A stretch of DNA of 64,000 nt from Fibrobacter sp. (GTDB lineage: Bacteria > Fibrobacterota > Fibrobacteria > Fibrobacterales > Fibrobacteraceae), in contig JAKSIG010000010.1 of the NCBI GenBank assembly GCA_024398955.1, positions 1 to 64,000 of the forward strand, read 5' to 3'. The notes below the pieces were generated by a model, which saw only the letters and a program-made list of their open reading frames with translations, was not told the origin of the DNA and did not search any database. This document shows, piece by piece, positions 3 to 60,560 of this stretch. A program made the translations under genes and the position numbers. Every line of letters starts with the position of its first letter. Positions within the stretch are counted from its first letter, which is position 1.

Positions 3-3000
3 ACTCAGATGAAGCTTACCGTGAAGTCCATCAACGATCCTCCCGTTATGAAGGATATCCCGGAACAGACCATCAAGGAAAAGCAGGAATTCAAGCCTGT
101 CGAACTCGACAAGTTTGTTGAAGACCTTGACCACGATAAGGCTAAGCTGAAGTGGAGCATTACCGGCAATCGCGAACTTAAGGTTGCTGTGGATGGCAAT
201 CGTGTGATGAAGGTGACTCCGCCGTCTCCGCAGTGGAACGGTTCCGAAACTCTTACCATCAAGGTTACTGACCCTGAAGGCGCTACCGACGAACGCTCTG
301 TCGCATACACTGTTGAATCTGTGAACGATGTTCCTGAATTCGTAAAGCAGGTTGCACCTCAGACCATCAAGGAAAAGGCTCAGTTCCAGCCCATCAAGCT
401 TGGTGAAATGGTTCGCGATCTGGACCACAAGTTGAGCGATCTTACCTTTGCCGTAGATGTCAAGTCTACCATTAAGGGTAAGGAAGCTGGTCTTACTGTT
501 GAAATTGATGCTCAGCAGGTTGCCAAGATCGTTATTCCTAACAAGTTGTGGAATGGTGCCGACGAAATCACCTTTACTGTGACCGACCCCGAAGGCGCAA
601 AGGCTACTTCTAAGGCTCTGTTCACTGTACAGTCTGTGAATGACGTTCCGGAACTGAAGAAGATTCCTGACCAGATGATCGATGAAAAGATGGAATTCGC
701 TTCCGTCAACCTTGCTGAACTTGTTTCTGATGCAGACCACTCCTTTGACCAGTTGAAGTGGACTGTTGCCGGAAATAAGGCTCTGAAGGTTAATATCGAC
801 AAGGCTGGCGTTGCTACTATCAAGGCTCCGTCTCCGCTGTGGAACGGTTCCGAAAAGATTTCCTTCACCGTAACTGACCCCGAAGGCGCTACCGCAAAGA
901 GCGACGCCGTGTTTACCGTAAAGTCTATCAATGATCCTCCTGTCATGAAGGATATTGCTAACCAGACCATTAAGGAAAAGGGTGAATTCAAGACTATTGA
1001 CTTGAATAGCTTCGTTGAAGATCAGGACCATGCCAAGGATAAGCTGAAGTGGACTGTTTCTGGCAATAAGGACCTGAAGGTAGTAGTTGATGCCAAGAAG
1101 GTTGCTACAATCACTACTCCCAACAAGTACTGGAATGGTTCTGAAGCAATCACCTTTACCGTAACTGACCCGGAAGGCGCATCTGATAAGCGCACGGTTA
1201 ACTTTACTGTTGAATCTGTAAATGACTTGCCGGTATTCACCAAGCCCATTAAGGATCAGACCATTCCTGAAAAGCGTGAATTCGCAATTATTAACCTGAA
1301 CGATATCGTGAACGATCCGGACCATAAGTCTGAACAGCTCTCCTGGTCTTTTGACGTTAAGTCTAAGGCCAAGGGTGGCACTGCTGCTCTGAAGGTGACT
1401 GTAGATGACCAGCGTATGGCAAAGATTGTTATTCCTGACAAGTACTGGAACGGTTCTGAAGAAATTACCTTCAAGGTCGAAGACCCTGATGGCGGCAAGG
1501 CTTCTTGCTCTGCAGTCTTTACCGTATCCTCTGTAAATGATGCCCCGACCATTGGTCAGATTAAGGATCAGTCCATTGACGAAAAGCAGCAGTTTGCAGA
1601 ATTTGATCTGGCAGCCCTCGTTAAGGACCCGGATCACGCCTTTGATAAGTTGAAGATTGAAGTTTCCGGTAATAAGGAACTTAAGGTGAATGTTGCCAAG
1701 GACGGTAAGGTTTCTGTGAAGACTCCTAACGCTCTCTGGAATGGCACCGAAAAGCTGACCTTTACGGTTACTGACCCTGAAGGCGCTTCTGCAAAGACTA
1801 TGGCAACCTTTGCCGTGAAGTCTATCAATGACGCCCCTGTCATGAAGGATATTGCAGATCAGACCATCAAGGAAAAGGGTTCCTTCAAGTCCTTCAACCT
1901 GGATAGCTTTGTTGATGACCTTGACCACCCGAAGAACAAGCTGAAGTGGAAGATTGAAGGTGCTAAGGAACTGAAGGTTGCAATGGATGCAAGCCACAAT
2001 GTTTCTATCACTCAGCCCAACCCGTTCTGGCATGGTTCTGAAAAGGTCAAGTTCACTGTTGTTGACCCTGAAGGTGCATCCGATAGTCGTGAAGTGACCT
2101 TCACTGTTGAATCTGTGAACGACGCTCCTGCTTTTGTCAAGGAACTGAAGGATCAGTCCATTGACGAAAAGAAGCAGTTCCAGACCATTAAGCTGGACGA
2201 ACTGGTTAAGGACCCCGACCACAAGAATTCCGAACTGAAGTGGTCCTTCGACGTGAAGCCGGTCAAGGCCGGTGCTTCTGCAGCCAAGGGCAAGAAGGGC
2301 AAGGCTGCCGAAGACGCCGCTCCTGCTCAGGATGGTCTGAAGGTTAAGGTTGATGCTCAGCATGTTGCAACCATCGTCATTCCGAACAAGTACTGGAATG
2401 GTGCTGCAGACATTGCCTTCACTGTTACTGACCCTGAAGGAGCAAAGGTTACTAAGACCGCTCGTTACGAAGTCCGTTCCATTAACGATCCTCCGAAGAT
2501 TTCTGAAAAGGCTCCGAAGGGTGAAACCATCAAGGAAAATGGCGTATTCAAGACCATCGACCTTTCTACTCTCGCATCTGACCCGGATCATAAGGCTACT
2601 CAGCTGAAATGGACCGTTTCTGGCAACAAGGGCCTGAAGGTTGATCTCCGTAAGGACAATACCGCAATCGTATCTGTACCTAACGATCAGTGGAATGGCA
2701 AGGAAGTAATTTCCTTCACCGTAACTGACCCCGAAGGCGCTTCTGCAACTCACAAGATGAACTTCGAAGTGACTCGCGTAAATGACGCTCCGGTGTTCAT
2801 TAAGAAGATTGCTGACCAGACCATCAAGGAAAAGCAGCAGTTCAAGCAGATTAAGCTGGATGAATTCGTTAAGGATCCGGATAATAAGCCTAATGAACTG
2901 AAGTGGACCGTTTCTGGTAACAAGAAGCTGAAGGCTGAAATCAATGGCAGCCGCGTGCTTACCGTTTCTGCTCCGGATCAGTACTTCTGGTGCAAGCCGG

Positions 3001-5444
3001 AAATGCTGGTTATTCAGGTTACCGACCCGGATGGTGCAACAACCTCTACTACTGCAACCTTTGAAATTACCTCTGTGAACGATGCTCCTGTCATGAAGGA
3101 CATTCCTGCTCAGAAGATTAAGGAAAAGGCTCAGTTCAAGGAAATTGACCTTAACAAGTTCGTTAAGGATCCGGACCATAAGCTTGAAGAATTGACCTGG
3201 ACCGCTAAGGTTTCCAAGGCTTCTGCTGCGGCTCCTGCAAAGAAGCCCGCCAAGAAGCCGGCTAAGAAGCCCGCCAAGAAGGGTGCTAAGGTTGAAGAAG
3301 AAGCTCCGGCACCGGAACCTGTTGATGAATTCCAGGTGGAAATCGATAGCAAGAACATTGCTCGCATTAAGCTTTCTGACAAGTACTGGAATGGTGAACG
3401 AAACGTGACCTTCACCGTGAAGGACCCCGAAGGCGCAACCGATTCCAAGACTGTTAACTTCGTTGTTGAATCTGTGAACGACGCTCCTGTCATTAAGCAG
3501 ATTCCTATCCAGACTATCGAAGAAAAGAAGGCCTTTGCACCTATTGAACTGTCTCAGTTTGTTTCTGATCCGGATCACAAGTTTGAACAGCTGAAGTTTG
3601 AACTGGCTCCTACTCGCGCGCTGAAGGCTTCCATCAATGCCAAGAAGCAGCTGGTTGTTTCTACTCCGGATAAGTTCTGGAACGGTTCCGAAAAGATTAA
3701 GCTGGACGTCTTTGACCCGGAAGGAGCTAAGGCTTCTCAGCAGATCACCTTTGAAGTGACTCCGGTGAACGATCCTCCTGTAATTGGTAAGATTGCTGGT
3801 CAGAAGATTAAGGAAAAGGAAAAGTTCGAAGTTGTTGATCTTTCTAAGTCTGCAACTGACCCGGATAACAAGCCCAACGAACTTCACTGGACTGTTTCTG
3901 GCAACAAGGAACTGAAGGTTGATATCAAGGGTAATCGTGCTCAGATTCTGACTCCGAACCCCAACTGGTTCGGTAAGGAAACCTTGACCTTTACCGTTAA
4001 GGATATCGCAGGCGCCTCTGCTTCTGCTAAGGCTACCTTCGAAGTGACTCCGGTGAACGATCCTCCTGTTCTGAAGCCAGTGCAGCCTTTCACCATCGAC
4101 GAAAAGAAGCAGTTTGCTCCCTTCGACTTTAGCAAGGTTGTAAGCGATCCTGATAACAAGCTGGATGAACTTGTATGGACTCTGGATAACGAAACTCCGG
4201 CTTCTAAGAATGCCAAGAATGCTCCTGCAAAGAAGGGCAAGAAGGCTGCCAAGGGTGCCGCTGTTGAAGCTGTCAAGCATGAACTGATCTTCAATATTGA
4301 CGAAAAGGGTGTGCTGACTGTTGAAATCCCCGACAAGTACTGGAACGGTACCGAAACCGTGAATGTGAATGTCTTTGACCCGGCTGGCGAAAAGGCTACT
4401 ATTCCTGTTAAGTTCACCGTACGTCCTGTAAACGATCCTCCTGTTGTTAAGGAAATTCCGGGCCAGGAAACTCTGGAAGGTAAGTCCTTCAAGCCCATTA
4501 AGCTGGACAGCTATGTTACCGACCCTGACCACAAGGTTCATGAAATCAAGTGGAAGGTTACTGGTGCAAAGAACCTTGCTGTTGAAATCTCTGGCGGTCG
4601 CGAAGCTGTAATCCGCCCGAAGAAGCAGGATTGGTTTGGCGAAGAAACTCTGGTCTTTACTGCTCAGGACCCTGCAGGTGGCACTGACAAGACTGTTGCC
4701 AAGTTCGTTGTTAAGCATGTAAATGCTGCTCCGATTATGCGCGACATTCCTGACTTTACCATTAAGGAAAACGATAACAAGGGCGTTGTTGCAAAGATCA
4801 AGCTTGACCAGTATGCCCGCGACAAGGATCATCGCTTTGATGAATTGAAGTGGACCTTTACCGGCAACAAGTTCTTGACCGTCAAGTACGACAAGAATTC
4901 TAAGACCGCTATTGTGGCTATGCCCCATGAACACTGGAAGGGTAAGCCGGAACGCATTACCTTCACTGTTACCGACCCTGAAGGTGCCAAGGCTTCTAGG
5001 TCTGCTTTGTTCACTGTGATTCCTGTGAACAATCCTCCTGAAGCAAATGCTCAGACTTACATGACCCAGGAAGGTGATGAACTTAAGGTTTCCGCTTCTG
5101 AAGGTTTGATGTCTGGTGTGGTTGACCCCGATGGTGAAAAGCCTGTGGCCGTTCAGCTGGTCCAGAAGCCCCGTAATGGTAAGATTACCCTGAACGAAAA
5201 GGATGGTTCCTTCACTTACGTTCCGAATAAGGGCTTCTCTGGCCTGGATGAATTCACCTTCAAGGTGAAGGACCCGGGTGGACTCTATTCCAAGGTTACT
5301 ACTGCTGAAATCAATGTCAGCTTTAAGATGAAGGATCTTCGCGGCGGTACCGCCAAGAAGGCCGAACCGAAGAAGGAAGAACCTAAGGAAGAACCCAAGG
5401 CAGAAAAGCCTGCCAAGGGCAAGAAGAAGGGTAAGAAGAAGTAA
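3..5444 (+). CDS. Giant tandem Ig/cadherin-like repeat surface protein (5' partial)
   Basis: The frame is open from the window edge, so the true start lies upstream; the ATG at 9 is internal to a repeat. About 16 complete repeats of 96-131 residues follow, each opening with an [S/P]-[V/I]-N-D-x-P motif and containing a DxDH/DPDH box, an LKW strand, a WNG turn and an FTVxDPEGA strand. These are typical of extracellular Ig/cadherin-like stacks in the VCBS and tandem-95 classes. The last repeat is a Big_9-like domain (GSFTYVPNKGFSG). The protein ends in a lysine-rich tail (KGKKKGKKK) with no recognisable T9SS sorting domain. Repeats 2, 5, 8, 11 and 14 carry a longer hairpin loop, in three cases lysine/alanine-rich. 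Signal peptide and export route are outside the window. An adhesive or structural surface role is inferred from family architecture only. Confidence 0.85.
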   Translation, partial: TQMKLTVKSINDPPVMKDIPEQTIKEKQEFKPVELDKFVEDLDHDKAKLKWSITGNRELKVAVDGNRVMKVTPPSPQWNGSETLTIKVTDPEGATDERSVAYTVESVNDVPEFVKQVAPQTIKEKAQFQPIKLGEMVRDLDHKLSDLTFAVDVKSTIKGKEAGLTVEIDAQQVAKIVIPNKLWNGADEITFTVTDPEGAKATSKALFTVQSVNDVPELKKIPDQMIDEKMEFASVNLAELVSDADHSFDQLKWTVAGNKALKVNIDKAGVATIKAPSPLWNGSEKISFTVTDPEGATAKSDAVFTVKSINDPPVMKDIANQTIKEKGEFKTIDLNSFVEDQDHAKDKLKWTVSGNKDLKVVVDAKKVATITTPNKYWNGSEAITFTVTDPEGASDKRTVNFTVESVNDLPVFTKPIKDQTIPEKREFAIINLNDIVNDPDHKSEQLSWSFDVKSKAKGGTAALKVTVDDQRMAKIVIPDKYWNGSEEITFKVEDPDGGKASCSAVFTVSSVNDAPTIGQIKDQSIDEKQQFAEFDLAALVKDPDHAFDKLKIEVSGNKELKVNVAKDGKVSVKTPNALWNGTEKLTFTVTDPEGASAKTMATFAVKSINDAPVMKDIADQTIKEKGSFKSFNLDSFVDDLDHPKNKLKWKIEGAKELKVAMDASHNVSITQPNPFWHGSEKVKFTVVDPEGASDSREVTFTVESVNDAPAFVKELKDQSIDEKKQFQTIKLDELVKDPDHKNSELKWSFDVKPVKAGASAAKGKKGKAAEDAAPAQDGLKVKVDAQHVATIVIPNKYWNGAADIAFTVTDPEGAKVTKTARYEVRSINDPPKISEKAPKGETIKENGVFKTIDLSTLASDPDHKATQLKWTVSGNKGLKVDLRKDNTAIVSVPNDQWNGKEVISFTVTDPEGASATHKMNFEVTRVNDAPVFIKKIADQTIKEKQQFKQIKLDEFVKDPDNKPNELKWTVSGNKKLKAEINGSRVLTVSAPDQYFWCKPEMLVIQVTDPDGATTSTTATFEITSVNDAPVMKDIPAQKIKEKAQFKEIDLNKFVKDPDHKLEELTWTAKVSKASAAAPAKKPAKKPAKKPAKKGAKVEEEAPAPEPVDEFQVEIDSKNIARIKLSDKYWNGERNVTFTVKDPEGATDSKTVNFVVESVNDAPVIKQIPIQTIEEKKAFAPIELSQFVSDPDHKFEQLKFELAPTRALKASINAKKQLVVSTPDKFWNGSEKIKLDVFDPEGAKASQQITFEVTPVNDPPVIGKIAGQKIKEKEKFEVVDLSKSATDPDNKPNELHWTVSGNKELKVDIKGNRAQILTPNPNWFGKETLTFTVKDIAGASASAKATFEVTPVNDPPVLKPVQPFTIDEKKQFAPFDFSKVVSDPDNKLDELVWTLDNETPASKNAKNAPAKKGKKAAKGAAVEAVKHELIFNIDEKGVLTVEIPDKYWNGTETVNVNVFDPAGEKATIPVKFTVRPVNDPPVVKEIPGQETLEGKSFKPIKLDSYVTDPDHKVHEIKWKVTGAKNLAVEISGGREAVIRPKKQDWFGEETLVFTAQDPAGGTDKTVAKFVVKHVNAAPIMRDIPDFTIKENDNKGVVAKIKLDQYARDKDHRFDELKWTFTGNKFLTVKYDKNSKTAIVAMPHEHWKGKPERITFTVTDPEGAKASRSALFTVIPVNNPPEANAQTYMTQEGDELKVSASEGLMSGVVDPDGEKPVAVQLVQKPRNGKITLNEKDGSFTYVPNKGFSGLDEFTFKVKDPGGLYSKVTTAEINVSFKMKDLRGGTAKKAEPKKEEPKEEPKAEKPAKGKKKGKKK

Positions 5445-23610: not shown

Positions 23611-23650
23611 AAAAAAATACTCCTCGTCTTCTACGAGGAGTATTTTTTTT
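23611..23650. terminator. Terminator of the collagen-like gene (bidirectional)
   Basis: AAAAAATACTCCTCGT-cttct-ACGAGGAGTATTTTTT, a perfect long stem, 24 nt beyond the minus-strand stop codon. Confidence 0.9.
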
Positions 23651-23673: not shown

Positions 23674-26400
23674 TTAATATTGAGAACACTTGTATTGTCC
23701 ATTCAAGTAATATTCTACGCCTTGGCTATTTCCATAGCAGTGTTCTCCTAGGTAACCCGTCTTGAGTCCCTTAACAGGAACATGGTCTACTTTGTTATTG
23801 CTATTGACTATGATGGCGACGCCGGAAAGATAATTTGGCCAGTGACGGAACATGTCGTTATTCCAGTTGGGATAATAGTCATGGGCGTTTAAACCAATTT
23901 TTTTATGAGTTACTGCCACTAGGTATGGGGCGACAAATTGATCATGAGATCCCACAACAGTCACTTTATGCATCTTTTCATATCTAAAGTGCTTGTTCTC
24001 TATGTCTTGAATTCGATCGTATACATTGTAAAATACGTTCGGGCATGCATTGGTGTCGGATGCCATTTTTGTGTATTTATACCAGCTATTAACTCCTCCA
24101 CACCAAAGCTGATCTTCTTTAGTTGATTTGTCCTTTATAAACCAGTCTCCCGAAAAATCGGATATTTTTTCGTAGTGCATATCGGAATAACCATCTTCCT
24201 TATCCCTTAGTGCATCGAAATTCATGAATGTTTCGCCTTTTGCTTGGGAAAACTGGACTACAGTATTGATTGTTCGATAAACATCGGTGCTCATGTAATA
24301 AAAGTCTTCCAAAGCTAAAGCCTGAATTTGTCTACCAAGGAATTGTGTTTGGTCAACTCCGTTTCCATTTAAGTCTCCAGCACGGCCGTGATCGGAGCCG
24401 CGTTCGCCGTGTCTAATAACGAAAGCAACCTTTTCATCAGGCAAAAGGCAGCCGAACACATCTGCCATGTCGATAAAATGGTCTTCCGTTGCACGCAGGT
24501 CTTTGCATTCCTGTGATAGTTCCGCAATGCTACTAGAGGAAAGATCGTTACTACTGGAAGAAACTTCTTCACTACTGCTAGATTCCACCACGATGCTTGA
24601 CGAACTTTCTGCGTTGCTGCTGCTGGATTCTGTAGAGCTGGAACTTGTGGGAACAAAATCCTGACCATCCTTGCCGGGTTCGCCCTGCGGTCCAGTTTCG
24701 CCTTGTTCACCCTGAGGACCTTGCTCGCCCTGCGGGCCCTGAGGACCAGTTTCACCCTGGTCTCCCTTTTCTCCGTTTGCTCCATTCCAGATGGAGATGG
24801 TTTCGGACTTGATGTTTCCTTCGGCATCCTTGTAGGTGATGATGATTCTGACACCGCCGTTAGGATGTTCTGGAGTAGCGTCAACATTTTCTGTACGGAT
24901 CGTGGGGGAGAATCCATCCTGACCGTCCTGTCCGTTCTGGCCAGGCTGACCGTCTTGTCCATTCTGCCCGTTTTGACCATCCTTACCCGGCTGGCCGTCC
25001 TGTCCATTCTGACCAGGCTGTCCGTCCTTTCCGTCAACGCCATCCTTGCCGTTTAAACCGTCTTTTCCATCGACACCGTTAATGCCGTCTTTACCGTCGG
25101 TACCATTCCTTAGAACGCCGACTTTTTCAGAGCCACAGTAGACGTCATAGCCATTGATTTCCTGATTTTCTGTCACATAGCAAGAAGTGCCATCGGCTCC
25201 ATCCTTGCCATTTTCGCCATCTTTACCATCAGTACCATTAATGCCGTCCTTCCCGTCAACACCATCCTTGCCGTTGGCGCCATTCCACACGTAAGTGGTG
25301 TCGGACTTGATGTTGCCTTCGGAATCCTTGTACGTAGAGATAATCATGACACCGCCGTTGGGGTGTTCTTCTGAACCTTCTAGAGAGACTGTAATTACAG
25401 AAGGACTGAATCCGTCTATGCCATCCTTACCGTTCTCACCGTCCTTGCCGTCAATTCCATTAATGCCATCTTTACCATCGGCTCCATCCTTGCCATCGGC
25501 TCCATTGAGCAGGACGCCTAGGGAGTCTCCTCCGCAAAGAACCTTATAGCCAGAGCCATTTGCAAGCGGAGCGATGGTGCAAGATTCTCCATCCTTGCCA
25601 TCGATACCGTCTTTCCCGTCGACACCGTTAATGCCGTCTTTCCCGTTGGTGCCGTCTATGCCATCCTTACCGTTCTCGCCGTCCTTGCCGTCAATTCCAT
25701 TAATGCCATCTTTACCATCGGCTCCATCCTTGCCATCGGCTCCATTGAGCAGGACGCCTAGGGAGTCTCCTCCGCAAAGAACCTTATAGCCAGAGCCATT
25801 TGCAAGCGGAGCGATGGAGCAAGATTCTCCATCCTTGCCATCGATACCGTCTTTTCCGTCGACACCGTTAATGCCGTCTTTTCCATTGACTCCATCCTTG
25901 CCGTTGATTCCGTCAATGCCATCTTTCCCATTAAGACCGTTGACGCCGTCCTTTCCGTCAGTTCCGTTGGATCCATTTTGTCCATTCCAGACGTAGGTGG
26001 TGTCGGAGAAAAAATTGCCTTCAACATCGATGTTGGTTGCAATAATCTGGATGCCCCCGTAGGGGTGATCCTTTGACGATTCTATAGGAGATACTTTTAA
26101 AACGGCAGAAGTTCCATCGACTCCATTAACGCCGTCCTTACCATCTGTGCCATTGGAACCGTTGGTTCCCGGTTCTCCCTTGGGGCCTTCAGCGCCGTCG
26201 GCTCCATTTAGCACGTATCCTACAGAGTCTCCGTTGCAAATGATTTTTATGCCTCGATTTTCAGAAAGGCTTTCGGTTTTGCAGCTGATTTCTGCATAGG
26301 CAGAATCTTGCAGGCTGTCAGTAAGTTCTGTAGTTGTTTGATCGCAGGCAACAAAAAGAAGGCCTGTTGATATAGATACAATCAGCTTTGCGATATTCAT
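23674..26400 (-). CDS. Collagen-like lipoprotein with C-terminal histidine phosphatase domain
   Basis: 908 residues. A lipoprotein signal (LLFVAC) is followed by Gly-X-Y stretches dominated by GKDGxNG and interrupted by two kinds of small modules. Type A has two cysteines and ends VGxLxNG. Type B contains HPxGGxxII, DxEGN and WNGxNG. The order is A-B-A-A-B-A-B. Bacterial GXY runs form collagen-like triple helices, so a trimeric stalk is likely. A serine-run linker leads to a C-terminal domain of about 280 residues with IRHGERG (Arg663-His664), a second arginine in STDVYRT, and VVGSHDQF, the catalytic pattern of the histidine phosphatase superfamily. The substrate is unknown. Start ATG 26400 follows GGGTG and a TACATCTG box. 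Not co-directional with close neighbours except the thioesterase pair upstream, from which a terminator separates it. Confidence 0.82.
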   Translation of the reverse strand: MNIAKLIVSISTGLLFVACDQTTTELTDSLQDSAYAEISCKTESLSENRGIKIICNGDSVGYVLNGADGAEGPKGEPGTNGSNGTDGKDGVNGVDGTSAVLKVSPIESSKDHPYGGIQIIATNIDVEGNFFSDTTYVWNGQNGSNGTDGKDGVNGLNGKDGIDGINGKDGVNGKDGINGVDGKDGIDGKDGESCSIAPLANGSGYKVLCGGDSLGVLLNGADGKDGADGKDGINGIDGKDGENGKDGIDGTNGKDGINGVDGKDGIDGKDGESCTIAPLANGSGYKVLCGGDSLGVLLNGADGKDGADGKDGINGIDGKDGENGKDGIDGFSPSVITVSLEGSEEHPNGGVMIISTYKDSEGNIKSDTTYVWNGANGKDGVDGKDGINGTDGKDGENGKDGADGTSCYVTENQEINGYDVYCGSEKVGVLRNGTDGKDGINGVDGKDGLNGKDGVDGKDGQPGQNGQDGQPGKDGQNGQNGQDGQPGQNGQDGQDGFSPTIRTENVDATPEHPNGGVRIIITYKDAEGNIKSETISIWNGANGEKGDQGETGPQGPQGEQGPQGEQGETGPQGEPGKDGQDFVPTSSSSTESSSSNAESSSSIVVESSSSEEVSSSSNDLSSSSIAELSQECKDLRATEDHFIDMADVFGCLLPDEKVAFVIRHGERGSDHGRAGDLNGNGVDQTQFLGRQIQALALEDFYYMSTDVYRTINTVVQFSQAKGETFMNFDALRDKEDGYSDMHYEKISDFSGDWFIKDKSTKEDQLWCGGVNSWYKYTKMASDTNACPNVFYNVYDRIQDIENKHFRYEKMHKVTVVGSHDQFVAPYLVAVTHKKIGLNAHDYYPNWNNDMFRHWPNYLSGVAIIVNSNNKVDHVPVKGLKTGYLGEHCYGNSQGVEYYLNGQYKCSQY
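25412..25891 (-). repeat. 240-bp tandem duplication in the collagen-like gene
   Basis: The segment from 25412 recurs with few differences from 25652, offset exactly 240 bp (80 codons). It encodes one A module plus its collagen stretch. The near-identity indicates recent duplication or ongoing homogenisation. Confidence 0.85.
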
Positions 26401-28192: not shown

Positions 28193-28200
28193 TACATTTG
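28193..28200 (+). promoter_or_regulatory. TACATTTG promoter box of the MCE operon
   Basis: TACATTTG matches TAnnTTTG exactly. It overlaps the TTG at 28198, so that codon cannot be the translation start of a transcript begun here. Confidence 0.5.
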
Positions 28201-28224
28201 TTCTTCCGAAAAATAGGGCTATAC

Positions 28225-29289
28225 TTGAGAAGAACCGAGATTAAATTGCCGCACAACTTAACGGCGGCAAACAGCAAGGAATTGCTGCGTGATTGCAAGA
28301 GGGCGCTCCGGCAGGGAACGCTTTGTCTTGATGGTTCCGACTTGAGCTATATGGACTACAGCGGAGACGCGTTTTTCGCCCTGCTGGCGGAACTTTCCGA
28401 AAAGACGGGGAACCGTCTGGATCTTGCTCACTTCAATGACGACATTAAGCAGCACTTAATGGGTTTGCGCAAATTCTCCATTCCCGAAAGAGAACGCAAG
28501 GAAACTACGAATATCTTTGAGGCCATGGGTGGGGTAGGGTTCAACCTGATACAGGAAGTGGTTCAGGTGTTTATCCTGCTGAACATGTGCATTTACTGGA
28601 CCATCCTGGGGCCGTTCGACAAGGGCAAAATTCGCTTTGGCGGTGTGGCCAAGCAGATGTTCCGACTAGGTAGCGAGGCTACCGGCATTTGCTTTTTGAT
28701 GGTTGCGCTGGTCTGCCTGACCATGGCGTTGCAGAGTTCCGTGATGCTCAATACCATTGGCGCAGGGTCTTACCTGGCGTCTGGCCTTGGCTTTTTGATT
28801 TTTGCAGAAATCGGCCCGCTGCTTACGACGATTATTCTTGCAGGCCGTTCCGGATCTTCTATTGCGGCTGAAATTGCAAACATGTCTGTCTGCGAAGAAG
28901 TCAAGGCCATTAAGACCATGGCTATTCCGCCGGTGCAGTACCTGGTGGTTCCCCGATTCCTGGCTATGAGCATTTGCACGCCTATCCTGAATTTCTGTGC
29001 CTCTATTTTTGGATGCTTTGCCGGTTTCCTGATTGGTTATTTCTGCTGCGACATCACCTTTACCAACTACCTGCAGGGTATTCGTGAAGGTATCGACCCT
29101 ATGGTGTTCTTGAAGAGTACCATCAAGGCTCTTGCCTTTGGATGGCTGGTGACCTTGATTTCTTGCAATAAGGGCCTGAACGCCAAGGGCGGTGCCGAAG
29201 CAGTGGGCTTGGCTACCACATCCAGCGTAGTGACTTCCATTGCAAGTATCGTTATTGCGGATACACTTTTTGCCTTCATTTTCTACTAG
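28225..29289 (+). CDS. mlaE: MlaE-type ABC permease with N-terminal STAS-like domain
   Basis: 354 residues. The first 90 form a STAS-like domain (LDGSDLSYMDYSGDAFF), then five or six membrane segments and the MlaE signature: SSVMLNTIGAGSYLASGLG, EIGPLLTTIILAGRSGSSIAAEIANM and EEVKAIKTM. MlaE dimers with MlaF ATPase and MCE proteins move phospholipids between inner and outer membranes. STAS is normally a separate subunit (MlaB) in Proteobacteria; here it is fused. No ATG is available at the N-terminus. TTG 28225 is chosen because AGGG lies 7 nt upstream and TTG 28198 lies inside the promoter box. First gene of a four-gene transport operon. Confidence 0.85.
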   Translation: MRRTEIKLPHNLTAANSKELLRDCKRALRQGTLCLDGSDLSYMDYSGDAFFALLAELSEKTGNRLDLAHFNDDIKQHLMGLRKFSIPERERKETTNIFEAMGGVGFNLIQEVVQVFILLNMCIYWTILGPFDKGKIRFGGVAKQMFRLGSEATGICFLMVALVCLTMALQSSVMLNTIGAGSYLASGLGFLIFAEIGPLLTTIILAGRSGSSIAAEIANMSVCEEVKAIKTMAIPPVQYLVVPRFLAMSICTPILNFCASIFGCFAGFLIGYFCCDITFTNYLQGIREGIDPMVFLKSTIKALAFGWLVTLISCNKGLNAKGGAEAVGLATTSSVVTSIASIVIADTLFAFIFY

Positions 29290-29297
29290 GAGTGACT

Positions 29298-30080
29298 GTG
29301 GACGAAATTCTAAAAGTAGATCACCTGAAGGCCGGTTATGGTGGACGCACCATTCTTCACGATATTTCCTTCGGCGTAAAGAAGGGGGAAATCCGCATGA
29401 TTCTTGGCAGTTCCGGTTGCGGCAAGTCTACGCTCCTGAACAACATCCTGAAGTTGTACAAGGCGGAAAGCGGAACCATAACCTATTTTGGCAAGACCTT
29501 TGGAGCCAAGGATGGCCTGGATAGCGAAACCCGCATGCGTACCGGAGTGCTGTTCCAGAGCGGGGCTTTGCTTTCGGACCTGACGGTAGCAGAAAATGCC
29601 ATGCTGCCTTTGAAGCGTAGCATGCCCTATATGCCCAAGAGCCAGATGGAAGCGATCGTGGCGGACCGTCTCGAAAAAGTCCATCTGCTTCATGCCTTCC
29701 ATAGGTATCCGTCGGAACTTTCTGGCGGTATGAAGAAGCGCGCTGCCCTTGCCAGAGCTATCGCCCTGAAGCCAGAACTTTTGTTCTGTGATGAACCTTC
29801 CACAGGTCTTGACCCGGTGACGGCTCATTCCCTGGATGAACTTCTACTAGAATTGCGGGATACCTTGGGCGTATCCATGGTTATTGTGAGTCACGAACTT
29901 GAAAGCATCAAGATCGTGTGCGACCGCTTTGTGTACCTGAAGGAAGGGTACGTTCACTTTGACGGTACCCTGCAGCAGGGGCTGGATTCGGAAGACCCCA
30001 TCCTTAAAACATTCTTTAGCCGTAAGAGTACAAAGGAACCAAAATCCGATGACACTTACCCCTTTAATTTTATTGACTGA
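29298..30080 (+). CDS. mlaF: MlaF-type ABC transporter ATPase
   Basis: 260 residues with Walker A GSSGCGKST, signature LSGGMKKRAALARA, Walker B ELLFCDEPSTGLDP and the switch histidine in VIVSHELES. The LSGGMxKR form of the signature is characteristic of MCE-transporter ATPases. GTG 29298 has AGGAG 5 nt upstream and is preferred to GTG 29292, which overlaps it. It lies 8 nt after the permease stop and 13 nt before the MCE gene. Confidence 0.92.
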   Translation: MDEILKVDHLKAGYGGRTILHDISFGVKKGEIRMILGSSGCGKSTLLNNILKLYKAESGTITYFGKTFGAKDGLDSETRMRTGVLFQSGALLSDLTVAENAMLPLKRSMPYMPKSQMEAIVADRLEKVHLLHAFHRYPSELSGGMKKRAALARAIALKPELLFCDEPSTGLDPVTAHSLDELLLELRDTLGVSMVIVSHELESIKIVCDRFVYLKEGYVHFDGTLQQGLDSEDPILKTFFSRKSTKEPKSDDTYPFNFID

Positions 30081-30093
30081 GTCGGAGCTATAG

Positions 30094-31041
30094 ATGGAAA
30101 CCACTCGTTCTGAAAGAATTAAACTCGGCATATTCATGTTCATTTGCCTGGCCCTGATTGTGGCTTTTTTGGGCTATGTGCTGAATCGCTTTATCAGTGC
30201 CGAGTACGACAACTACTATACCGTATTCAAGGGCTCGGTGATTGGCCTTTATAACGAGGCCAAGGTAAAGCTGAATGGTATTGACGTGGGTAACGTGACC
30301 GGCATCCAGATTGATTCCTCTAGCCTGGATCAGGTGGTGGTTTCCTTCAAGGTGAAGCATGGCACTCCCATTAAGCCGGGAACCCGCGCTGGCATGACCA
30401 ACGGTCTTTCGCTTACTGGCGAAAAGCACATCGTGCTTTCTGGCGGAGACTTTAGCGAGCCCAACTTGCAGGAAGGGGGCTTTGTTCCTGCCGAAGCCTC
30501 CTCTTTTGACAAGTTCGCAGACCAGGCTGGCGGTATGGTGGATAAAATTGATACTGTTCTTACCAACGTGAGCAGCGTGTTTACTGCTGAGAATGTGGAG
30601 AATATCCGCATTACTCTTAAGAACATGGCTGATATGAGTGCGAACCTGAATCGTACGACTCGCGATCTGGCGAAGCCTATTGAAAGTGTCTCTAAGACTG
30701 CAGAATCCATGCAGGCTGCTGCCGAATCCATGAAATCAGTTCTGGCAAGTATCGAAGAAGCGAAACTTGCTGCAAAGGCCGGCGAAAATATGGACTTGCT
30801 TAAGGAAAAGCTGGAAGCCATCGATACCAAGAGCATGAACGACAACTTGACTCAGGCTATGGAATCCATTAATAAGCTTGCCCAACGTTTGGATGTAATG
30901 GTCTATAACAATCAGGACCAGGTGGGCGAGGTGCTTACGGAACTGAACAGTGTTCTTGAAAATCTGGATGAGTTCAGCCAGAAAATCAAGAACAATCCCT
31001 CTGCTCTTATCCGTTCCGAAAATAAAAGTCGTAGACAATAA
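30094..31041 (+). CDS. mlaD: MCE domain substrate-binding protein, MlaD-like
   Basis: 315 residues with an N-terminal membrane anchor (LGIFMFICLALIVAFLGYVL). The MCE domain follows: YYTVFKGSVIGLYNEAKVKLNGIDVGNVTGI and KPGTRAGMTNGLSLTGEKHI. A long helical C-terminus (residues 150-300, ETAESMQAAAESMKS) can form a tube or coiled coil across the periplasm. MCE hexamers carry lipids between membranes. ATG 30094 with GGAG upstream. Third gene of the operon. Confidence 0.9.
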   Translation: METTRSERIKLGIFMFICLALIVAFLGYVLNRFISAEYDNYYTVFKGSVIGLYNEAKVKLNGIDVGNVTGIQIDSSSLDQVVVSFKVKHGTPIKPGTRAGMTNGLSLTGEKHIVLSGGDFSEPNLQEGGFVPAEASSFDKFADQAGGMVDKIDTVLTNVSSVFTAENVENIRITLKNMADMSANLNRTTRDLAKPIESVSKTAESMQAAAESMKSVLASIEEAKLAAKAGENMDLLKEKLEAIDTKSMNDNLTQAMESINKLAQRLDVMVYNNQDQVGEVLTELNSVLENLDEFSQKIKNNPSALIRSENKSRRQ

Positions 31042-31097
31042 TTTTTTTATAAAGACTGCGTTTTTACAAAAGCAATTTGTATAAGGATAGTTTAAAA

Positions 31098-31706
31098 ATG
31101 AAGTTTGCAAAGTCATATAAGTTTCTTGGTCTTGTTGCCGCAATTTTTGTGGCTGGACTTTTGACGGGCTGCCTGGGTGGTGGTTCCAGCGAGCCTACCC
31201 GTTACTATGTGGTGGATGTGGAAGATATTAGTGCTTCTGGCGCAGGCAATGCTACTAAGTCTGTTCAAATCCGTAAGTTCACCATCGATCCTGCCTACCA
31301 GCGTAGCAACATCGTGTACCGTGAATCGGCCTACACCTTCATGTTCTATGATCTGGACCTGTGGGCTTCTCGACCGGATCAGATGTTGCTGAAGACTGCA
31401 ACAAAGTACATTGAACAGAGCGGCCTGTTTGCCAAGGGCGGAAAAACCGCAAAGCCTGATTACGAAATTGCGGGGAACATCGATGCTATCGAGGAAATCG
31501 ACGAAGGTAGCAATCGCTTTGCCCATCTCGATATGACCTTGACCTTCCGCAAGACTGAGGGCGAAACTTTGTTCGAAAAGGAATACGACGAGCGCATGTC
31601 TATGGAAGGCTCTGAACCTCAGCATGTGGCTATGGCAATGTCCAAACTTTATGGAAAGTTCATGGAAGACTTTCTGAAAAATGTTTCCCAGAATATAGGC
31701 GAATAA
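31098..31706 (+). CDS. ABC-type transport auxiliary lipoprotein (PqiC/YmbA-like)
   Basis: 202 residues with a lipobox (GLLTGC, then a glycine-rich segment), followed by YYVVDVEDI, RKFTIDPAYQRSNIVYRES and YIEQSGLF, the pattern of the ABC-transport auxiliary component family (PqiC/YmbA). These lipoproteins connect MCE transporters to the outer membrane. Start ATG 31098 with AAGGA 10 nt upstream; a TTG at 31077 in frame would place seven charged residues before the signal and is less likely. Last transport gene of the operon. Confidence 0.82.
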   Translation: MKFAKSYKFLGLVAAIFVAGLLTGCLGGGSSEPTRYYVVDVEDISASGAGNATKSVQIRKFTIDPAYQRSNIVYRESAYTFMFYDLDLWASRPDQMLLKTATKYIEQSGLFAKGGKTAKPDYEIAGNIDAIEEIDEGSNRFAHLDMTLTFRKTEGETLFEKEYDERMSMEGSEPQHVAMAMSKLYGKFMEDFLKNVSQNIGE

Positions 31707-55332: not shown

Positions 55333-57177
55333 ATGTCTAAAAGAATTTCGCTTTTTTTAGTGCTTGTTTGCATGCTTGTCTTGCAGTCCTTTGCAGCTAC
55401 TGCGGGAACTGCCGTCGTTCGGTATCGCGAAGGCGATGTAGAACGCACAAAGGGTGGTGAATCCAACTGGAAAATGCTGATGGTGGGCCAGAAGGTAAGC
55501 CCTAAGGATACCGTAAAATCTGCTTTGGAATCCCAGGCGACTTTGGGACTGAAAGATGGTTCCATGATTACCATTACCGAAAACTCCTTCATCGCGCTTT
55601 CCGAAATGATGGAAGAAGATGGCTCCTACCGCACTACGGTGGACGTGATTACGGGGCAGCTTGTTTTCGCTGTTCAGAAACAGGAGCGAAATTCTGAATT
55701 CAAGTTTAAGACAGGAGTCATGGCAGCTGCAATTCGTGGCACCGAAGGTTGTATTTCTGGCAACGTACATGGTCTTGTGGGTTTAAAGAATGGGGCTCTG
55801 CAAATTGACTTGTTCTCTGGGGAAAAGGCTCTGATTCGTGGAGGCCAGGTCGCTTTTAAGTTGGATTCCCTAATTGTCCTGAATCTTCGTTCTGCCGGGG
55901 ATCCTGACTTTCATAAGCGGTTATCGGCAATTCTAGAAGATACGACCTTTGTTCGCGAGGATTTGATTAAGCGTATTCAGGAAGAAGATGCTGCCTACCA
56001 GGAACTCCTGACTGTGGCCCGTAAGGATGCCAAGTGCTTTTTCGAAGCCCTTCCCGATACCGTCCATTCTCAGGAAATCAGAATACATGGCCGCTGTGCC
56101 GCAGGCTCCAAGGTGAACTTCTATGGCGAATGGATCCAGCTGGATGACGAAGGCAAGTTCCTGCAGACCGTAACGCTGGATTCTGTGGCTGTTGGTGAAA
56201 AGCGCTTTAAGTTGACTTGTTCCAACGGACGTGTGAATTTTGACTGTGCCGAGGCAATGACCTACTATAAGCCGGCCGAGGCCTTGTTCCAGAATACCTA
56301 CGTCCTGACATCTCCGGTTCCTGCAACCGTATGCGAAGATGGCCTTGTTGTAGAAGGAACCTATCAGGTGAAGGATTCCCTGGCAACGCTGTTCCTGAAT
56401 GTGGGGGATGTCTACAAGTCTTCTAACTTGATAAAGATTGCCGATGGGGAATCTCATCCCTTTGCCCAGAATGTTACGCTTTCGGATCGCAATGGTCTGT
56501 GGAATGTTAAGACCGCATCCTTGGAATTTGAGGTTGGTGGCATCAAGGACGTACGCGAGATTCCTCTGAAAATAGACCATACATGTCGTGGAGTTAACCA
56601 GAATCCTCCTGCCTTGCAGTTTATCGGATATGATTCCTTAGCCTGTAAGGCGAACATCGCCATTGGCAACAGTCAGGATGATATGGGAATTTTCAAGGTG
56701 GACATTGATAACATGGGAGGAAAGTCTACCATTGTCGAAAAGAATATGACAACCAAGGTCAGCCTTAAACCAGGAATTCACGATTACGAATTCATTGCCG
56801 AAGACCAGGCGGGGAACGTGGCCTCGATTTCTAGAACTTTAGGCTGTTTCCCAAATAAGTTTTTTAGCGTTAAAATTGACGGAGGTAACGGCAATGAGGT
56901 TGTCTGGGGTGGGCTTCAGGCCTATCCGGGCGGAAAGAAGGCCCCCATTCAGAGGACTCTTCGATTTTCTATCGACTTGCCCAACGAAAATGAAGTTTAC
57001 AGCGTTATGGTCCGTCAGAATGGAAGAGTTATCCTGAAGGAAATTTTAACTCAGATTGCTTCTCTGGATTATGAAGTCCCCGTGGAACTTATGCCCAGAA
57101 AGAACAAGCTTGAAATTATTGTAAAGCACAAGAGTGGCTATGTTGCAACCGCAACCAAGATTTATGAGGTTAAGTAA
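55333..57177 (+). CDS. Exported FecR-domain protein
   Basis: 614 residues. Signal peptide (LVLVCMLVLQSFAAT), then a FecR-type domain at about 25-180: AVVRYREGDVERTKGG, VGQKVSPKDTVKS, SQATLGLKDGSMITI, TGVMAAAIRGTEG. In TonB systems FecR is an anti-sigma factor with a cytoplasmic tail; here it is exported without an inner-membrane anchor or sigma-factor partner, so a structural or ligand-binding role is more likely. The remainder holds several Ig-like beta segments with paired cysteines (CRGVNQNPPALQF, AEDQAGNVAS). The stop overlaps the next start (TAATG). Confidence 0.8.
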   Translation: MSKRISLFLVLVCMLVLQSFAATAGTAVVRYREGDVERTKGGESNWKMLMVGQKVSPKDTVKSALESQATLGLKDGSMITITENSFIALSEMMEEDGSYRTTVDVITGQLVFAVQKQERNSEFKFKTGVMAAAIRGTEGCISGNVHGLVGLKNGALQIDLFSGEKALIRGGQVAFKLDSLIVLNLRSAGDPDFHKRLSAILEDTTFVREDLIKRIQEEDAAYQELLTVARKDAKCFFEALPDTVHSQEIRIHGRCAAGSKVNFYGEWIQLDDEGKFLQTVTLDSVAVGEKRFKLTCSNGRVNFDCAEAMTYYKPAEALFQNTYVLTSPVPATVCEDGLVVEGTYQVKDSLATLFLNVGDVYKSSNLIKIADGESHPFAQNVTLSDRNGLWNVKTASLEFEVGGIKDVREIPLKIDHTCRGVNQNPPALQFIGYDSLACKANIAIGNSQDDMGIFKVDIDNMGGKSTIVEKNMTTKVSLKPGIHDYEFIAEDQAGNVASISRTLGCFPNKFFSVKIDGGNGNEVVWGGLQAYPGGKKAPIQRTLRFSIDLPNENEVYSVMVRQNGRVILKEILTQIASLDYEVPVELMPRKNKLEIIVKHKSGYVATATKIYEVK

Positions 57178-60100
57178 TGAATAAGCTTTTGTTTGCCTTG
57201 ACCTGTGTTGTTGTCGGTTCGGCCCTTGCCCAGGACACTACGGCTGTTGTCGCACCGGTTGCTCCCGCTCCTGTCGCTTCTGCAACTGATTCTTTGATTC
57301 CTGTAAGCTCCAGCAGCGAGGATTCGACGATTGTTCCTTCTTCCAGTTCGCAGGATTCCCTTGTCGTTGCTGAATCTTCTAGTTCCGAACAGATCGCTTT
57401 GTCAAGCTCCGAACAGATTGTAGATTCCACTGATTCTCTTTCGGTATCGTCAAGCTCTATTGAACAATCCAGCTCAAGCATAGAAGTCATTGAATCTTCA
57501 AGCTCTGCACTGTCGTCTAGTTCTATAAAGATTGAAGTCTCTTACACTGAAATCGGTGGCGAAATCAATGGATTCCTTACGGCAGCCAAGTCGCCCTATA
57601 AAGTAACATCCTCGCTGGTCGTTTCTGAAAACCAGGCTCTGGTTATCGATGCTGGTGTAGAACTTTATTTTGCCGCAGGCTCTGGCCTTGACATTCGTGG
57701 GGGAGCCTTTGCTGCCATCGGTAACGAGGAACGTCCCGTAAAAATGCTGGCTGCCGATTCCACAAAATTGTGGGAAGGCGTAAGGCTCACTGGCGAAGTC
57801 CGTGGGGATTTCAACAATGTATCCATTGAAGGCGCCAGGACGGCCATCGCCCTGGAAAACGCAGGTGCCGATATACTTCATGCATCTGTTGCAAAATCAC
57901 AGGTCGGCATTTCCCTAAGGAATTCAAATGCCAAACTTCTAAATGTCAAAATCCATGGAAATAAGGCGGGAACCATTATTTCTGAAGGCTGCTTCGTCTC
58001 TATTGACAACGTGGACTTTACCAAAAACGAGACTGCACTTGTCGCTTCAGAAAATACAGAAATCCTGCTTTCCAATGTGAACGTGTCAGACAATAATCTT
58101 GGCATTCTGGATATGGAAAACAACATCATCAAGGATCGTTCCTTGAAGGTGGAAAAGAACGAAGTCGGCATAGCCTCTGTGGATATCCTGCCTGAAAATC
58201 TGAGGGCTGTAACTGCAAACAATTCCCTGGATGTTTCAAATGCGGCAAAGTCCTTGTACTTGAATCTGCCGGAAGTCGCTGAGAATCCCTACGCAATGTC
58301 CTATAGGGCTTCTGCGGTTCCGTCGATTCAGGCGGCGGAATTGCCCAGGACCTGGCTCTTGACGGGTAATGTCAGCACAGAAATTGGCTATCATCTGGTT
58401 TTTACAAATCATAACCACACAAACGGCTCCTACATTTTCGGGACTGATACCGTAGCACCTGGCGAACGCTACGAAAACTACTTTAAGGTTCCGGGACTTT
58501 ATAGCCGCTACAATACCTACATGAAGTTGACTTCTCCCGAAGGCAGAACCTTTGAGTTTTCTACCGATGTTGAAAGCGATCAGTGGAATTCATGGAACGT
58601 TCATAACGTCAACTTGACCTATACCGATGAAACCCGTAAGGTTGTTCTTGGCGATATGTTCCTGAATGGTGGCGACATCTATATGAATGGCTTAAATCTT
58701 TTTGGTGCAGCCTACACGACGGGCTACCTGAAGAAGGACGATGGCCGCCACGTGTTTGAAACCACAGTCTTTGCTGGCGAAACAAACAAGCCTAAGTTGC
58801 TGGGAGATGACAATCCCGACGTGTATAACGATGTTATTCAGGATGGAGAAGCCGAAGTTCAGAATGTTGTTGCCGGTGGTCGAGTTACCTGGAATATGCA
58901 TAAGCGTTTTAGCGGTGCATTAGGCTTTATCGGAAGCGAAAGCTATAAGGAAGACCCCTACTTCCGAGATGGAATGTCTGAACGTGTAAATACCATTGAT
59001 CCCGAGATATCTTCCAGGACTTTCTTTGCCGAAGGTAACTGGCTTTTCTGGCCTGGAGATATTGAGTTAAACGGACAGGTCGCCTTTGGTTCAGCCGACA
59101 CCACCGATGCTCAGGCCCAGCGTGCCATAGACCGTGTGTTTACTGCTGCTGGACTTTCTGTAGAAAACTTCGCCCTGCTTCGTAAGCTGATGAAGGATGA
59201 ACAGCTGGTATCTACCTTAAGCCGAAATGACCTTGAAGAAATTTTTGGCGATAACAGCACCATGACTTTGAGTGAAATGCGTGAACAACTGCGGTCCTTG
59301 TTAAGGAACGCCAGGGAAATCAGCCGCTCTTATGAAAAACGTGATGGAGATCCATCTGAAATTTCTGGCTGGGATGGTCAGAATGTCGCCGCTCGCGCAG
59401 GATTCCGCTGGGGCATAGGCAGAACCACGTTAAGTGGGCATTTTAAGTATGTGGGATCTAAATTCTATAGCGCAGGCTCTCCCGACCAGTTAAGCAATTC
59501 CCGCCAAATCGATTTTGCTGTCGATCAGCGTCTATTTGATTTCTGGAGGCTTTCTCTTGGCTATGAACTGAATGTTGAAAATGCAGCTTCCGGAGAAGAG
59601 TATAATGTGCTGGGCACAAAGGAAGGCTCCGTATCAGGATTGCCTTTTGAATCTACCTCTAGTTGGGAACGGGAACATGTCGATGATGAGGACCGTGCTC
59701 TATTCATTCATGACATTGTTTTCAGGAACTCCTTTAAATTGAGTCTTTTTGATGTCTCGCTCAAGTACAAGTTGAATTTGCGCGACCGCAATCGTGCAAT
59801 CCATCTCTACTCTGACTATCGTGCCGAATCTGGCGTCCTTAAGGATCCGTGGTTTGCTCCTAGCGGAGATAATTCTGTTTATGCCTTCAATAGCAACGGC
59901 GATACAGTCAGGGTGGATTCCGCAAGATTCGACCAGTATTACGACCTTAGGGATGAGCCGTTCCTGGCCTCGGGCTTTGAGGAACGCCTGCTGAAGCATA
60001 GCGTAGAACTGGAACTTTCACTCAAGCTGAACAAGCATATTGTCCGCTTTGGCGGAGTTTGGATTTATCGAGACGATCTGTCTAAGTTCCGCGAAGATGA

Positions 60101-60560
60101 TTTGCTGGAAGATTTTGAATTTAAGAATGAAACTTATGGATACCTCGGATACTATTTCCATGGGGCTGATTTCTTTGAGCAGCGTTATCCGGTTTCATGG
60201 TCTGCCAATTACGAACGCTGGAATAATCATCTGAGCTTTGTTCCGCGATTCAAATCCTACAATCGCGACGACATGACGGAATTTGAATGGTCCCTGAACG
60301 AGTCCTTCGAAATGGTATTGATCAAGAACCGACTTGAAATGTCTATCAATGGGGAAGTTCGTCAGGAATTCGTCAGCCGCGATAGGGGTTCCGATGAATC
60401 CGAAGCCGACCTGAACGCCTCTGGAACGGTAACGGTCCACTACACAAAGGACCTGTCGTCTGACTATACCATTGGCGGTTATTACTGCTATCGTCCTGAT
60501 TCTAGAGCCGATCAGTATAAAGACATCTTTGCGTCCTTCAGCCTGAATTACGCATTCTAA
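57177..60560 (+). CDS. Parallel beta-helix / outer-membrane barrel fusion protein
   Basis: 1127 residues. Signal peptide (LLFALTCVVVGSALAQ), a long serine-run linker (residues 40-120, SSSS words separated by acidic or hydrophobic residues), then a right-handed beta-helix-like region (about 120-350: repeated hydrophobic rungs, VIDAGVELYFAAGSGLDIRGG, GVRLTGEVRGDFNNVSIEGARTAI). It then turns into a long series of amphipathic strands ending SFSLNYAF, an outer-membrane C-terminal strand. Near 640-720 a helical, charged insertion occurs (AREISRSYEKRDGDPSE). A passenger on a barrel recalls autotransporters, but the passenger is N-terminal and no autotransporter linker is recognised. Function unknown. 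Confidence 0.7.
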   Translation: MNKLLFALTCVVVGSALAQDTTAVVAPVAPAPVASATDSLIPVSSSSEDSTIVPSSSSQDSLVVAESSSSEQIALSSSEQIVDSTDSLSVSSSSIEQSSSSIEVIESSSSALSSSSIKIEVSYTEIGGEINGFLTAAKSPYKVTSSLVVSENQALVIDAGVELYFAAGSGLDIRGGAFAAIGNEERPVKMLAADSTKLWEGVRLTGEVRGDFNNVSIEGARTAIALENAGADILHASVAKSQVGISLRNSNAKLLNVKIHGNKAGTIISEGCFVSIDNVDFTKNETALVASENTEILLSNVNVSDNNLGILDMENNIIKDRSLKVEKNEVGIASVDILPENLRAVTANNSLDVSNAAKSLYLNLPEVAENPYAMSYRASAVPSIQAAELPRTWLLTGNVSTEIGYHLVFTNHNHTNGSYIFGTDTVAPGERYENYFKVPGLYSRYNTYMKLTSPEGRTFEFSTDVESDQWNSWNVHNVNLTYTDETRKVVLGDMFLNGGDIYMNGLNLFGAAYTTGYLKKDDGRHVFETTVFAGETNKPKLLGDDNPDVYNDVIQDGEAEVQNVVAGGRVTWNMHKRFSGALGFIGSESYKEDPYFRDGMSERVNTIDPEISSRTFFAEGNWLFWPGDIELNGQVAFGSADTTDAQAQRAIDRVFTAAGLSVENFALLRKLMKDEQLVSTLSRNDLEEIFGDNSTMTLSEMREQLRSLLRNAREISRSYEKRDGDPSEISGWDGQNVAARAGFRWGIGRTTLSGHFKYVGSKFYSAGSPDQLSNSRQIDFAVDQRLFDFWRLSLGYELNVENAASGEEYNVLGTKEGSVSGLPFESTSSWEREHVDDEDRALFIHDIVFRNSFKLSLFDVSLKYKLNLRDRNRAIHLYSDYRAESGVLKDPWFAPSGDNSVYAFNSNGDTVRVDSARFDQYYDLRDEPFLASGFEERLLKHSVELELSLKLNKHIVRFGGVWIYRDDLSKFREDDLLEDFEFKNETYGYLGYYFHGADFFEQRYPVSWSANYERWNNHLSFVPRFKSYNRDDMTEFEWSLNESFEMVLIKNRLEMSINGEVRQEFVSRDRGSDESEADLNASGTVTVHYTKDLSSDYTIGGYYCYRPDSRADQYKDIFASFSLNYAF

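What the first reader, a model, noticed from the sequence alone, without database searches (positions are those of the whole stretch)
23674..26400. Collagen-like stalk carrying a catalytic-looking histidine phosphatase
A lipoprotein with long GXY repeats, two alternating small module families (A: two cysteines; B: HPxGG/WNGxNG; order A-B-A-A-B-A-B), a serine-run linker and a C-terminal histidine phosphatase domain with RHG, second Arg and SHD all present. Combining a collagen trimer with a surface phosphatase (phytase-like or phospho-glycan-directed) is unusual and would display three active sites at the tip of a rod.
Basis: partly seen in the sequence, partly recalled or inferred. Interest (0 to 1): 0.72.

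Follow-up and report, generated by a model that had tools for sequence, protein, structure and literature searches.

The report
Collagen-stalked surface phosphatase in Fibrobacter
A fibre-degrading gut bacterium of the genus Fibrobacter encodes a membrane-anchored protein made of a long collagen-like stalk with a phosphate-removing enzyme domain at its end. It belongs to an apparently undescribed family that recurs across the genus with interchangeable stalks.

Summary
The 908-aa ORF (23674-26400, minus strand) has a lipoprotein signal, 105 Gly-X-Y triplets in seven runs, interrupting modules in the order A-B-A-A-B-A-B, a Ser-run linker and a C-terminal histidine phosphatase (HP) domain. No Pfam model detects the domain by itself. 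Three things identify it: own-genome paralogs and 52 of 57 relatives hit His_Phos_1; an AlphaFold2 model has pLDDT 95 and pTM 0.93 and matches histidine phosphatases; and R663, H664, R667, R709, H819 and D820 are invariant in 57 sequences. The invariant RHxxR plus HD set resembles the acid-phosphatase/phytase catalytic set, although sequence profiles lie nearer branch 1 (Ais/PmrG, SixA).

It is not a one-off. Every Fibrobacter genome listed carries the HP family (1-11 copies), mostly as lipoproteins. Collagen stalks occur on only one of two deep clades, which also has four extra invariant cysteines. In the same genome, related collagen/A-module stalks end in a different domain (FISUMP), so stalk and cargo are exchangeable.

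Best explanation: an outer-membrane lipoprotein holding an active, broad phosphomonoesterase away from the cell, probably for phosphate release at plant surfaces. Trimer, surface exposure, activity and substrate are untested. Novelty: new variant of a known kind.

The parts
23674..26400 (-). whole ORF, 908 aa collagen-like lipoprotein with histidine phosphatase domain
26344..26400 (-). lipoprotein signal peptide and lipobox cysteine (Cys19, LLFVAC)
   Evidence: sequence
26203..26283 (-). A module 1 (C-X14-C...NG)
26107..26205 (-). collagen-like run 1, 11 GXY triplets
25984..26112 (-). B module 1 (HPYGG ... WNG)
25822..25983 (-). collagen-like run 2, 18 triplets
25741..25821 (-). A module 2
25582..25743 (-). 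collagen-like run 3, 18 triplets
25501..25581 (-). A module 3
25412..25888 (-). 240-bp tandem duplication, 2 copies, 97% identical, covering an A module plus collagen run
25405..25503 (-). collagen-like run 4, 11 triplets
25282..25410 (-). B module 2 (HPNGG ... WNG)
25183..25281 (-). collagen-like run 5, 11 triplets
25102..25182 (-). A module 4
24907..25104 (-). collagen-like run 6, 22 triplets
24784..24912 (-). B module 3
24658..24783 (-). collagen-like run 7, 14 triplets
24517..24651 (-). Ser-run linker (residues 584-628)
23677..24507 (-). histidine phosphatase domain, residues 632-908
   Evidence: AlphaFold2 pLDDT 95.1; PDB fold matches; family profile hits of relatives
24400..24414 (-). 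RHGER motif: R663, H664 (nucleophile), R667
   Evidence: invariant in 57 sequences
24271..24279 (-). YRT motif: R709
   Evidence: R709 invariant in 57 sequences
23941..23949 (-). SHD motif: H819, D820 (candidate proton donor)
   Evidence: H819 and D820 invariant in 57 sequences
23611..23649 (.). 17-bp stem with T tail downstream of the gene, terminator-like (weak: number of such sites found is near chance)

Best explanation
This is an outer-membrane lipoprotein that presents an active histidine phosphatase at the end of a long, interrupted collagen-like stalk. Steps shown: lipobox by sequence; GXY runs; HP fold (predicted); conserved catalytic residues. Steps inferred: Cys19 is lipidated and the protein reaches the cell surface. 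The GXY runs (rich in GKD, Pro-poor) associate as triple helices, with the small beta A/B modules as spacers or nucleating knots and the Ser linker as a flexible tether. H664 attacks the phosphate to give a phosphohistidine; R663, R667, R709 and H819 hold the phosphate; D820 protonates the leaving group. Most likely role: releasing phosphate, and possibly dephosphorylated organic molecules, from phosphomonoesters on or near plant fibre for uptake. The stalk is a general display device of Fibrobacter, since related stalks carry FISUMP domains.
For: HP fold: model pLDDT 95.1, pTM 0.93; the listed Foldseek matches (prob 1.00) and VIA matches (Z up to 12.2) are histidine phosphatases (RosC, PGAM5, SixA, prostatic acid phosphatase, phytase) or proteins with a histidine phosphatase domain. 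Profile A1 hits phosphoglycerate-mutase-fold chains (4.8e-05); 52/57 relatives hit His_Phos_1. Catalytic set R, H, R, R, H, D invariant 57/57; H33 follows strand 26-32, R78 sits at the start of helix 77-89 after strand 70-73, and H188 follows strand 182-187 in the model, the canonical arrangement. RHGXRXP plus HD chemistry is documented for acid phosphatases (PMC3669009). Collagen. Cargo exchange: stalk relatives in the same genome, with a FISUMP end confirmed in an example and FISUMP matches in the same frames of others. Recurrent architecture.
Against: No direct evidence for surface location, trimerisation or activity. The Pro-poor GXY runs may not be stable helices alone. The substrate is unknown: fold neighbours tie in Z, and the most frequent specific profile hit is the LPS heptose-phosphate phosphatase Ais/PmrG (34/57), which points to a periplasmic or envelope substrate as an alternative. 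I saw no linked phosphate-uptake genes next to it.
Confidence: 0.6

Rival explanations
1. The HP domain is an envelope-directed phosphatase, like Ais/PmrG, that trims phosphate from the cell's own LPS or surface glycans; the stalk sets its reach within or just outside the envelope.
For: 34/57 relatives hit LPS core heptose(II)-phosphate phosphatase (best 1.1e-07) and 21/57 hit PmrG; this domain itself has a weak hit there.
Against: Hits are far below the curated cut-offs (25 bits against 142). A stalk of over 100 GXY triplets seems excessive for the periplasm. Many short-linker paralogs exist that could do that job.
Confidence: 0.2
2. The domain is mainly a binding module (a phosphate- or glycan-binding pseudoenzyme) on an adhesin stalk, comparable to Lcl or FISUMP proteins, and catalysis is incidental.
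For: Lcl, a studied collagen-like surface protein, is an adhesin (PMC11162425); related stalks in this genome carry FISUMP domains of unknown function; a pseudoenzyme with this fold is in the PDB (8gdl).
Against: All six catalytic residues are invariant over 57 sequences down to about 23-30% identity, which is unexpected if catalysis were lost.
Confidence: 0.12
3. The GXY regions are a flexible low-complexity tether, not a triple helix, so the enzyme is displayed as a monomer. (This concerns the stalk and is compatible with the enzyme part of the best explanation.)
For: Pro is rare in the runs (5 X and 5 Y positions of about 100), there is no recognised trimerisation domain, and the structure model of the modules is of low confidence.
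Against: Strict glycine periodicity over 105 triplets, recurring in many species; GKD-rich sequences can stabilise bacterial collagens by charge pairs (own knowledge).
Confidence: 0.25

Closest known systems
Lcl, collagen-like adhesin of Legionella (collagen stalk plus DUF1566 tip)
   Same: N-terminal attachment region, collagen-like stalk, globular C-terminal domain; trimeric lollipop shown by experiment (PMC11162425)
   Different: Tip is a glycosaminoglycan-binding DUF1566 domain, not an enzyme; N-terminal helix rather than a lipobox; no A/B interruptions described in the passages read
Collagen/A-module FISUMP proteins of the same genome
   Same: Lipobox, A-type modules and GXY runs (L086, L088, L089)
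   Different: C-terminal FISUMP domain instead of HP, often with an extra middle domain
Ais/PmrG LPS core heptose(II)-phosphate phosphatase
   Same: Most frequent specific profile hit among relatives; extracytoplasmic histidine phosphatase (own knowledge)
   Different: No stalk; hits far below cut-off; the family here has an invariant HD pair
Histidine acid phosphatases/phytases (branch 2, AppA, MINPP)
   Same: RHxxR plus HD catalytic residues; related fold (Z 10.6-11.7)
   Different: Here 277 aa without the large alpha domain; profiles prefer branch 1; no Pro of RHGxRxP
SixA/PhoE/phosphoserine phosphatase (branch 1)
   Same: Size and fold; His_Phos_1 profile
   Different: Lack the HD donor pair and RHxxR (own knowledge); cytoplasmic, no stalk

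Membership tests
Histidine phosphatase superfamily | RH nucleophile motif, second Arg, second His | tested here: met
   R663-H664, R709, H819 invariant in 57/57
Histidine phosphatase superfamily | Phosphoglycerate-mutase-like alpha/beta fold | tested here: met
   pLDDT 95.1 model; Foldseek prob 1.00 and Z up to 12.2 to family members
Histidine phosphatase superfamily | Curated profile match (His_Phos_1) | tested here: inconclusive
   this domain alone has no hit, but 52 of 57 aligned relatives do
Histidine phosphatase superfamily | Phosphatase activity through phosphohistidine | not testable with these tools
   needs an assay
Histidine acid phosphatase/phytase (branch 2) | RHGxRxP and HD motifs | tested here: inconclusive
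   R, H, R and HD are present and invariant, but the Pro is absent (RHGERGS) and Gly varies to Ala
Histidine acid phosphatase/phytase (branch 2) | Curated profile His_Phos_2 | tested here: not met
   no match to this domain; a separate gene on contig C88 of this genome does match
Ais/PmrG | NCBIfam score over cut-off | tested here: not met
   15 bits for this domain against a cut-off of 142
Bacterial collagen-like protein | Long uninterrupted Gly-X-Y runs | tested here: met
   105 triplets in 7 runs; Pfam Collagen 1.4e-49
Bacterial collagen-like protein | Triple helix formation | not testable with these tools
   no multimer prediction available
Scl1/Scl2 or Lcl adhesin | NCBIfam equivalog score over cut-off | tested here: not met
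   183 of 325 bits (Scl2), 77 of 400 (Scl1) and 62 of 500 (Lcl); best stretches lie in the stalk
Bacterial lipoprotein | Lipobox Cys after a signal peptide | tested here: met
   LLFVAC at 14-19 by inspection; most relatives have a lipobox too

The most novel reading that the evidence does not exclude
Fibrobacter has a modular surface-display system in which collagen-like stalks built from interchangeable beta knots hold different end domains, among them a trivalent ecto-phosphatase acting at the plant-fibre surface: an enzyme-bearing bacterial collagen.
Probability: 0.4. Interest if true: 0.72.

Novelty: new variant of a known kind. Interest (0 to 1): 0.52.

Why it matters
Well-studied bacterial collagens end in binding or trimerisation domains. 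A genus-wide family in which the same kind of stalk ends in a conserved, apparently active phosphatase would widen what bacterial collagens do. It would also give a concrete surface enzyme to test in major fibre degraders of herbivore guts, where cell-surface mechanisms remain poorly understood. The modular parts could serve as natural scaffolds for enzyme display.

Tried and rejected
Direct Pfam search of the domain: no hit, resolved with paralogs. Weak hits to bocavirus NS1, NusA-like and MORN models were rejected as chance. Phage origin: no relative in viral contigs. Plasmid origin: none. A/B module structure: model too poor (pLDDT 57.7) to search. Literature: no paper in the library on Fibrobacter collagen-like proteins or histidine phosphatases; two Fibrobacter surface-proteome papers mention neither collagen nor phosphatase in their main text. 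Branch assignment from fold alone rejected because Z values tie.

Full report
WHAT IS THERE. The ORF at 23674-26400 (minus strand) encodes 908 aa exactly as reported. Reading from the N-terminus: signal peptide and lipobox (LLFVAC, Cys19); seven Gly-X-Y runs of 11, 18, 18, 11, 11, 22 and 14 triplets; A modules at 40-66, 194-220, 274-300 and 407-433; B modules at 97-139, 331-373 and 497-539; a Ser-run linker at 584-628; and a C-terminal domain at 632-908. The longest run in 200 shuffles was 6 triplets, so the periodicity is not chance. Runs are dominated by GKD and are poor in proline. A 240-bp unit (A module plus collagen) is duplicated in tandem at 97% identity, so the stalk changes length by recent duplication.

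THE C-TERMINAL DOMAIN. By itself it has no Pfam match. A search of its own genome found four relatives at 34-42% identity, all of which match Pfam His_Phos_1. A profile of 19 relatives hits phosphoglycerate-mutase-fold chains in the PDB, and 52 of 57 relatives match His_Phos_1. AlphaFold2 with 57 sequences gives pLDDT 95.1 and pTM 0.93. The listed Foldseek and VIA-align matches are histidine phosphatases or proteins containing such a domain, with Z up to 12.2. The best Z values are within about 1 of each other across RosC, SixA, PGAM5 and prostatic acid phosphatase, so the subfamily cannot be read from the fold.

CATALYTIC RESIDUES. In 57 sequences R663, H664, R667, R709, H819 and D820 are invariant; E666 is not. 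In the model these fall after strand 1, at the start of the helix after strand 2, and after a later strand, which is the superfamily arrangement (inference from secondary structure, distances not measured). The invariant RHxxR plus HD set is what acid phosphatases and phytases use, with the Asp as proton donor (PMC3669009; PMC3969271). The sequence profiles nevertheless favour branch 1, and the most frequent specific model is Ais/PmrG (34/57 members at E 0.01, well below cut-off where checked). I therefore call it a compact histidine phosphatase with an acid-phosphatase-like catalytic set and leave the branch open.

DISTRIBUTION. All 37 genomes of the genus in the first survey carry the family, and none of 24 genomes outside it at E 1e-3. 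A profile search of the phylum found it in all the genus members listed, in about half of the other genomes of the family, and in no listed genome of other families. Named hits are Fibrobacter from horse faeces, rumen and similar sources, plus rumen and horse-gut Bacteroidales with short signal-peptide versions. The Bacteroidales form one clade nested beside Fibrobacter sequences, which suggests horizontal transfer (inference).

ARCHITECTURE AND EVOLUTION. A 130-row tree splits into two deep groups (99/94). All 20 collagen-stalked proteins lie in one group of 34 rows, mixed with Ser-linker and other short forms; the other 96 rows have none. The label needs about 7 changes on the tree, so stalks have been gained or lost repeatedly within that group. 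Of the sequences in alignment A2, the first 24 rows, which come from the collagen-bearing group, all share four cysteines (C1, C20, C136, C155 of the domain) that are mostly absent elsewhere; these probably form two disulphides (inference). The window protein's nearest relative is a 1015-aa collagen-HP protein from a horse-faecal Fibrobacter MAG at 64-65% identity. B modules are rare: 3 of 61 genus genomes. A-type modules are common, and some relatives have A-like modules ending in WNG as B modules do, so A and B are probably length variants of one beta unit; the low-confidence model shows three strands in each.

STALK SHARED WITH ANOTHER END DOMAIN. In the same genome, A-module/collagen segments occur in several other large proteins. 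One checked example has a FISUMP domain at 1.4e-54, and FISUMP matches lie in the same open frames of others on contigs C55, C19, C29, C82 and C25. The genome has about 100 FISUMP matches. Stalk and end domain are thus separable parts.

MECHANISM. Shown: lipobox sequence, GXY runs, predicted HP fold, conserved catalytic set, genus-wide conservation. Inferred: lipidation, surface exposure, triple helix, catalysis, role. I put 0.6 on an active surface phosphatase on a stalk, with phosphate release from plant-associated or dissolved phosphomonoesters as the likeliest role. Alternatives are an envelope/LPS phosphatase, a binding pseudoenzyme, and a monomeric tether without triple helix.

NOVELTY. 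Collagen-like bacterial proteins and histidine phosphatases are both well known. I found no paper in the library on this combination or on this Fibrobacter family, but the library lacks most subscription papers. I rate it a new variant of a known kind.

Noticed in passing
own genome G000, contig C55:66000-93000 (L086, L087): Array of at least five large lipoproteins with A-module/collagen stalk, a shared middle domain and a FISUMP-type C-terminus; they look like recent duplicates.
   Followed up: partly
own genome G000: About 100 FISUMP (Fib_succ_major) matches in one 3.2-Mb genome, an extreme paralog expansion of unknown function.
   Followed up: no
L117, L120, L131, L135 and similar loci: Three to five histidine-phosphatase proteins, mostly with lipoboxes, lie side by side in tandem clusters, with different N-terminal regions on related HP domains.
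   Followed up: partly
L142, L144, L147, L149, L151, L155, L156, L159, L161, L163, L166: Short secreted HP relatives in rumen and horse-gut Bacteroidales form one clade next to Fibrobacter sequences, suggesting transfer between phyla in the gut.
   Followed up: partly
L100 3800-6000: A relative's stalk also holds AYQIAVDNGFEGTEEEWLASLKG units, a third kind of collagen-interrupting module.
   Followed up: no
L084 2431-6000 (G000:C25): A lipoprotein of over 1190 aa with many A modules followed by a long cysteine-rich repeat region, with a FISUMP match further on in the same frame.
   Followed up: no
window 9-5441 +: 1811-aa protein of tandem bacterial Ig/cadherin-like domains, probably another surface protein.
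   Followed up: no
window 57177-60560 +: 1127-aa ORF without any Pfam match at 1e-5.
   Followed up: no
window 28198-31706 +: Apparent Mla-type lipid-transport gene cluster (permease, ATPase, MCE-like protein, lipoprotein) judged by reading the translations only.
   Followed up: no
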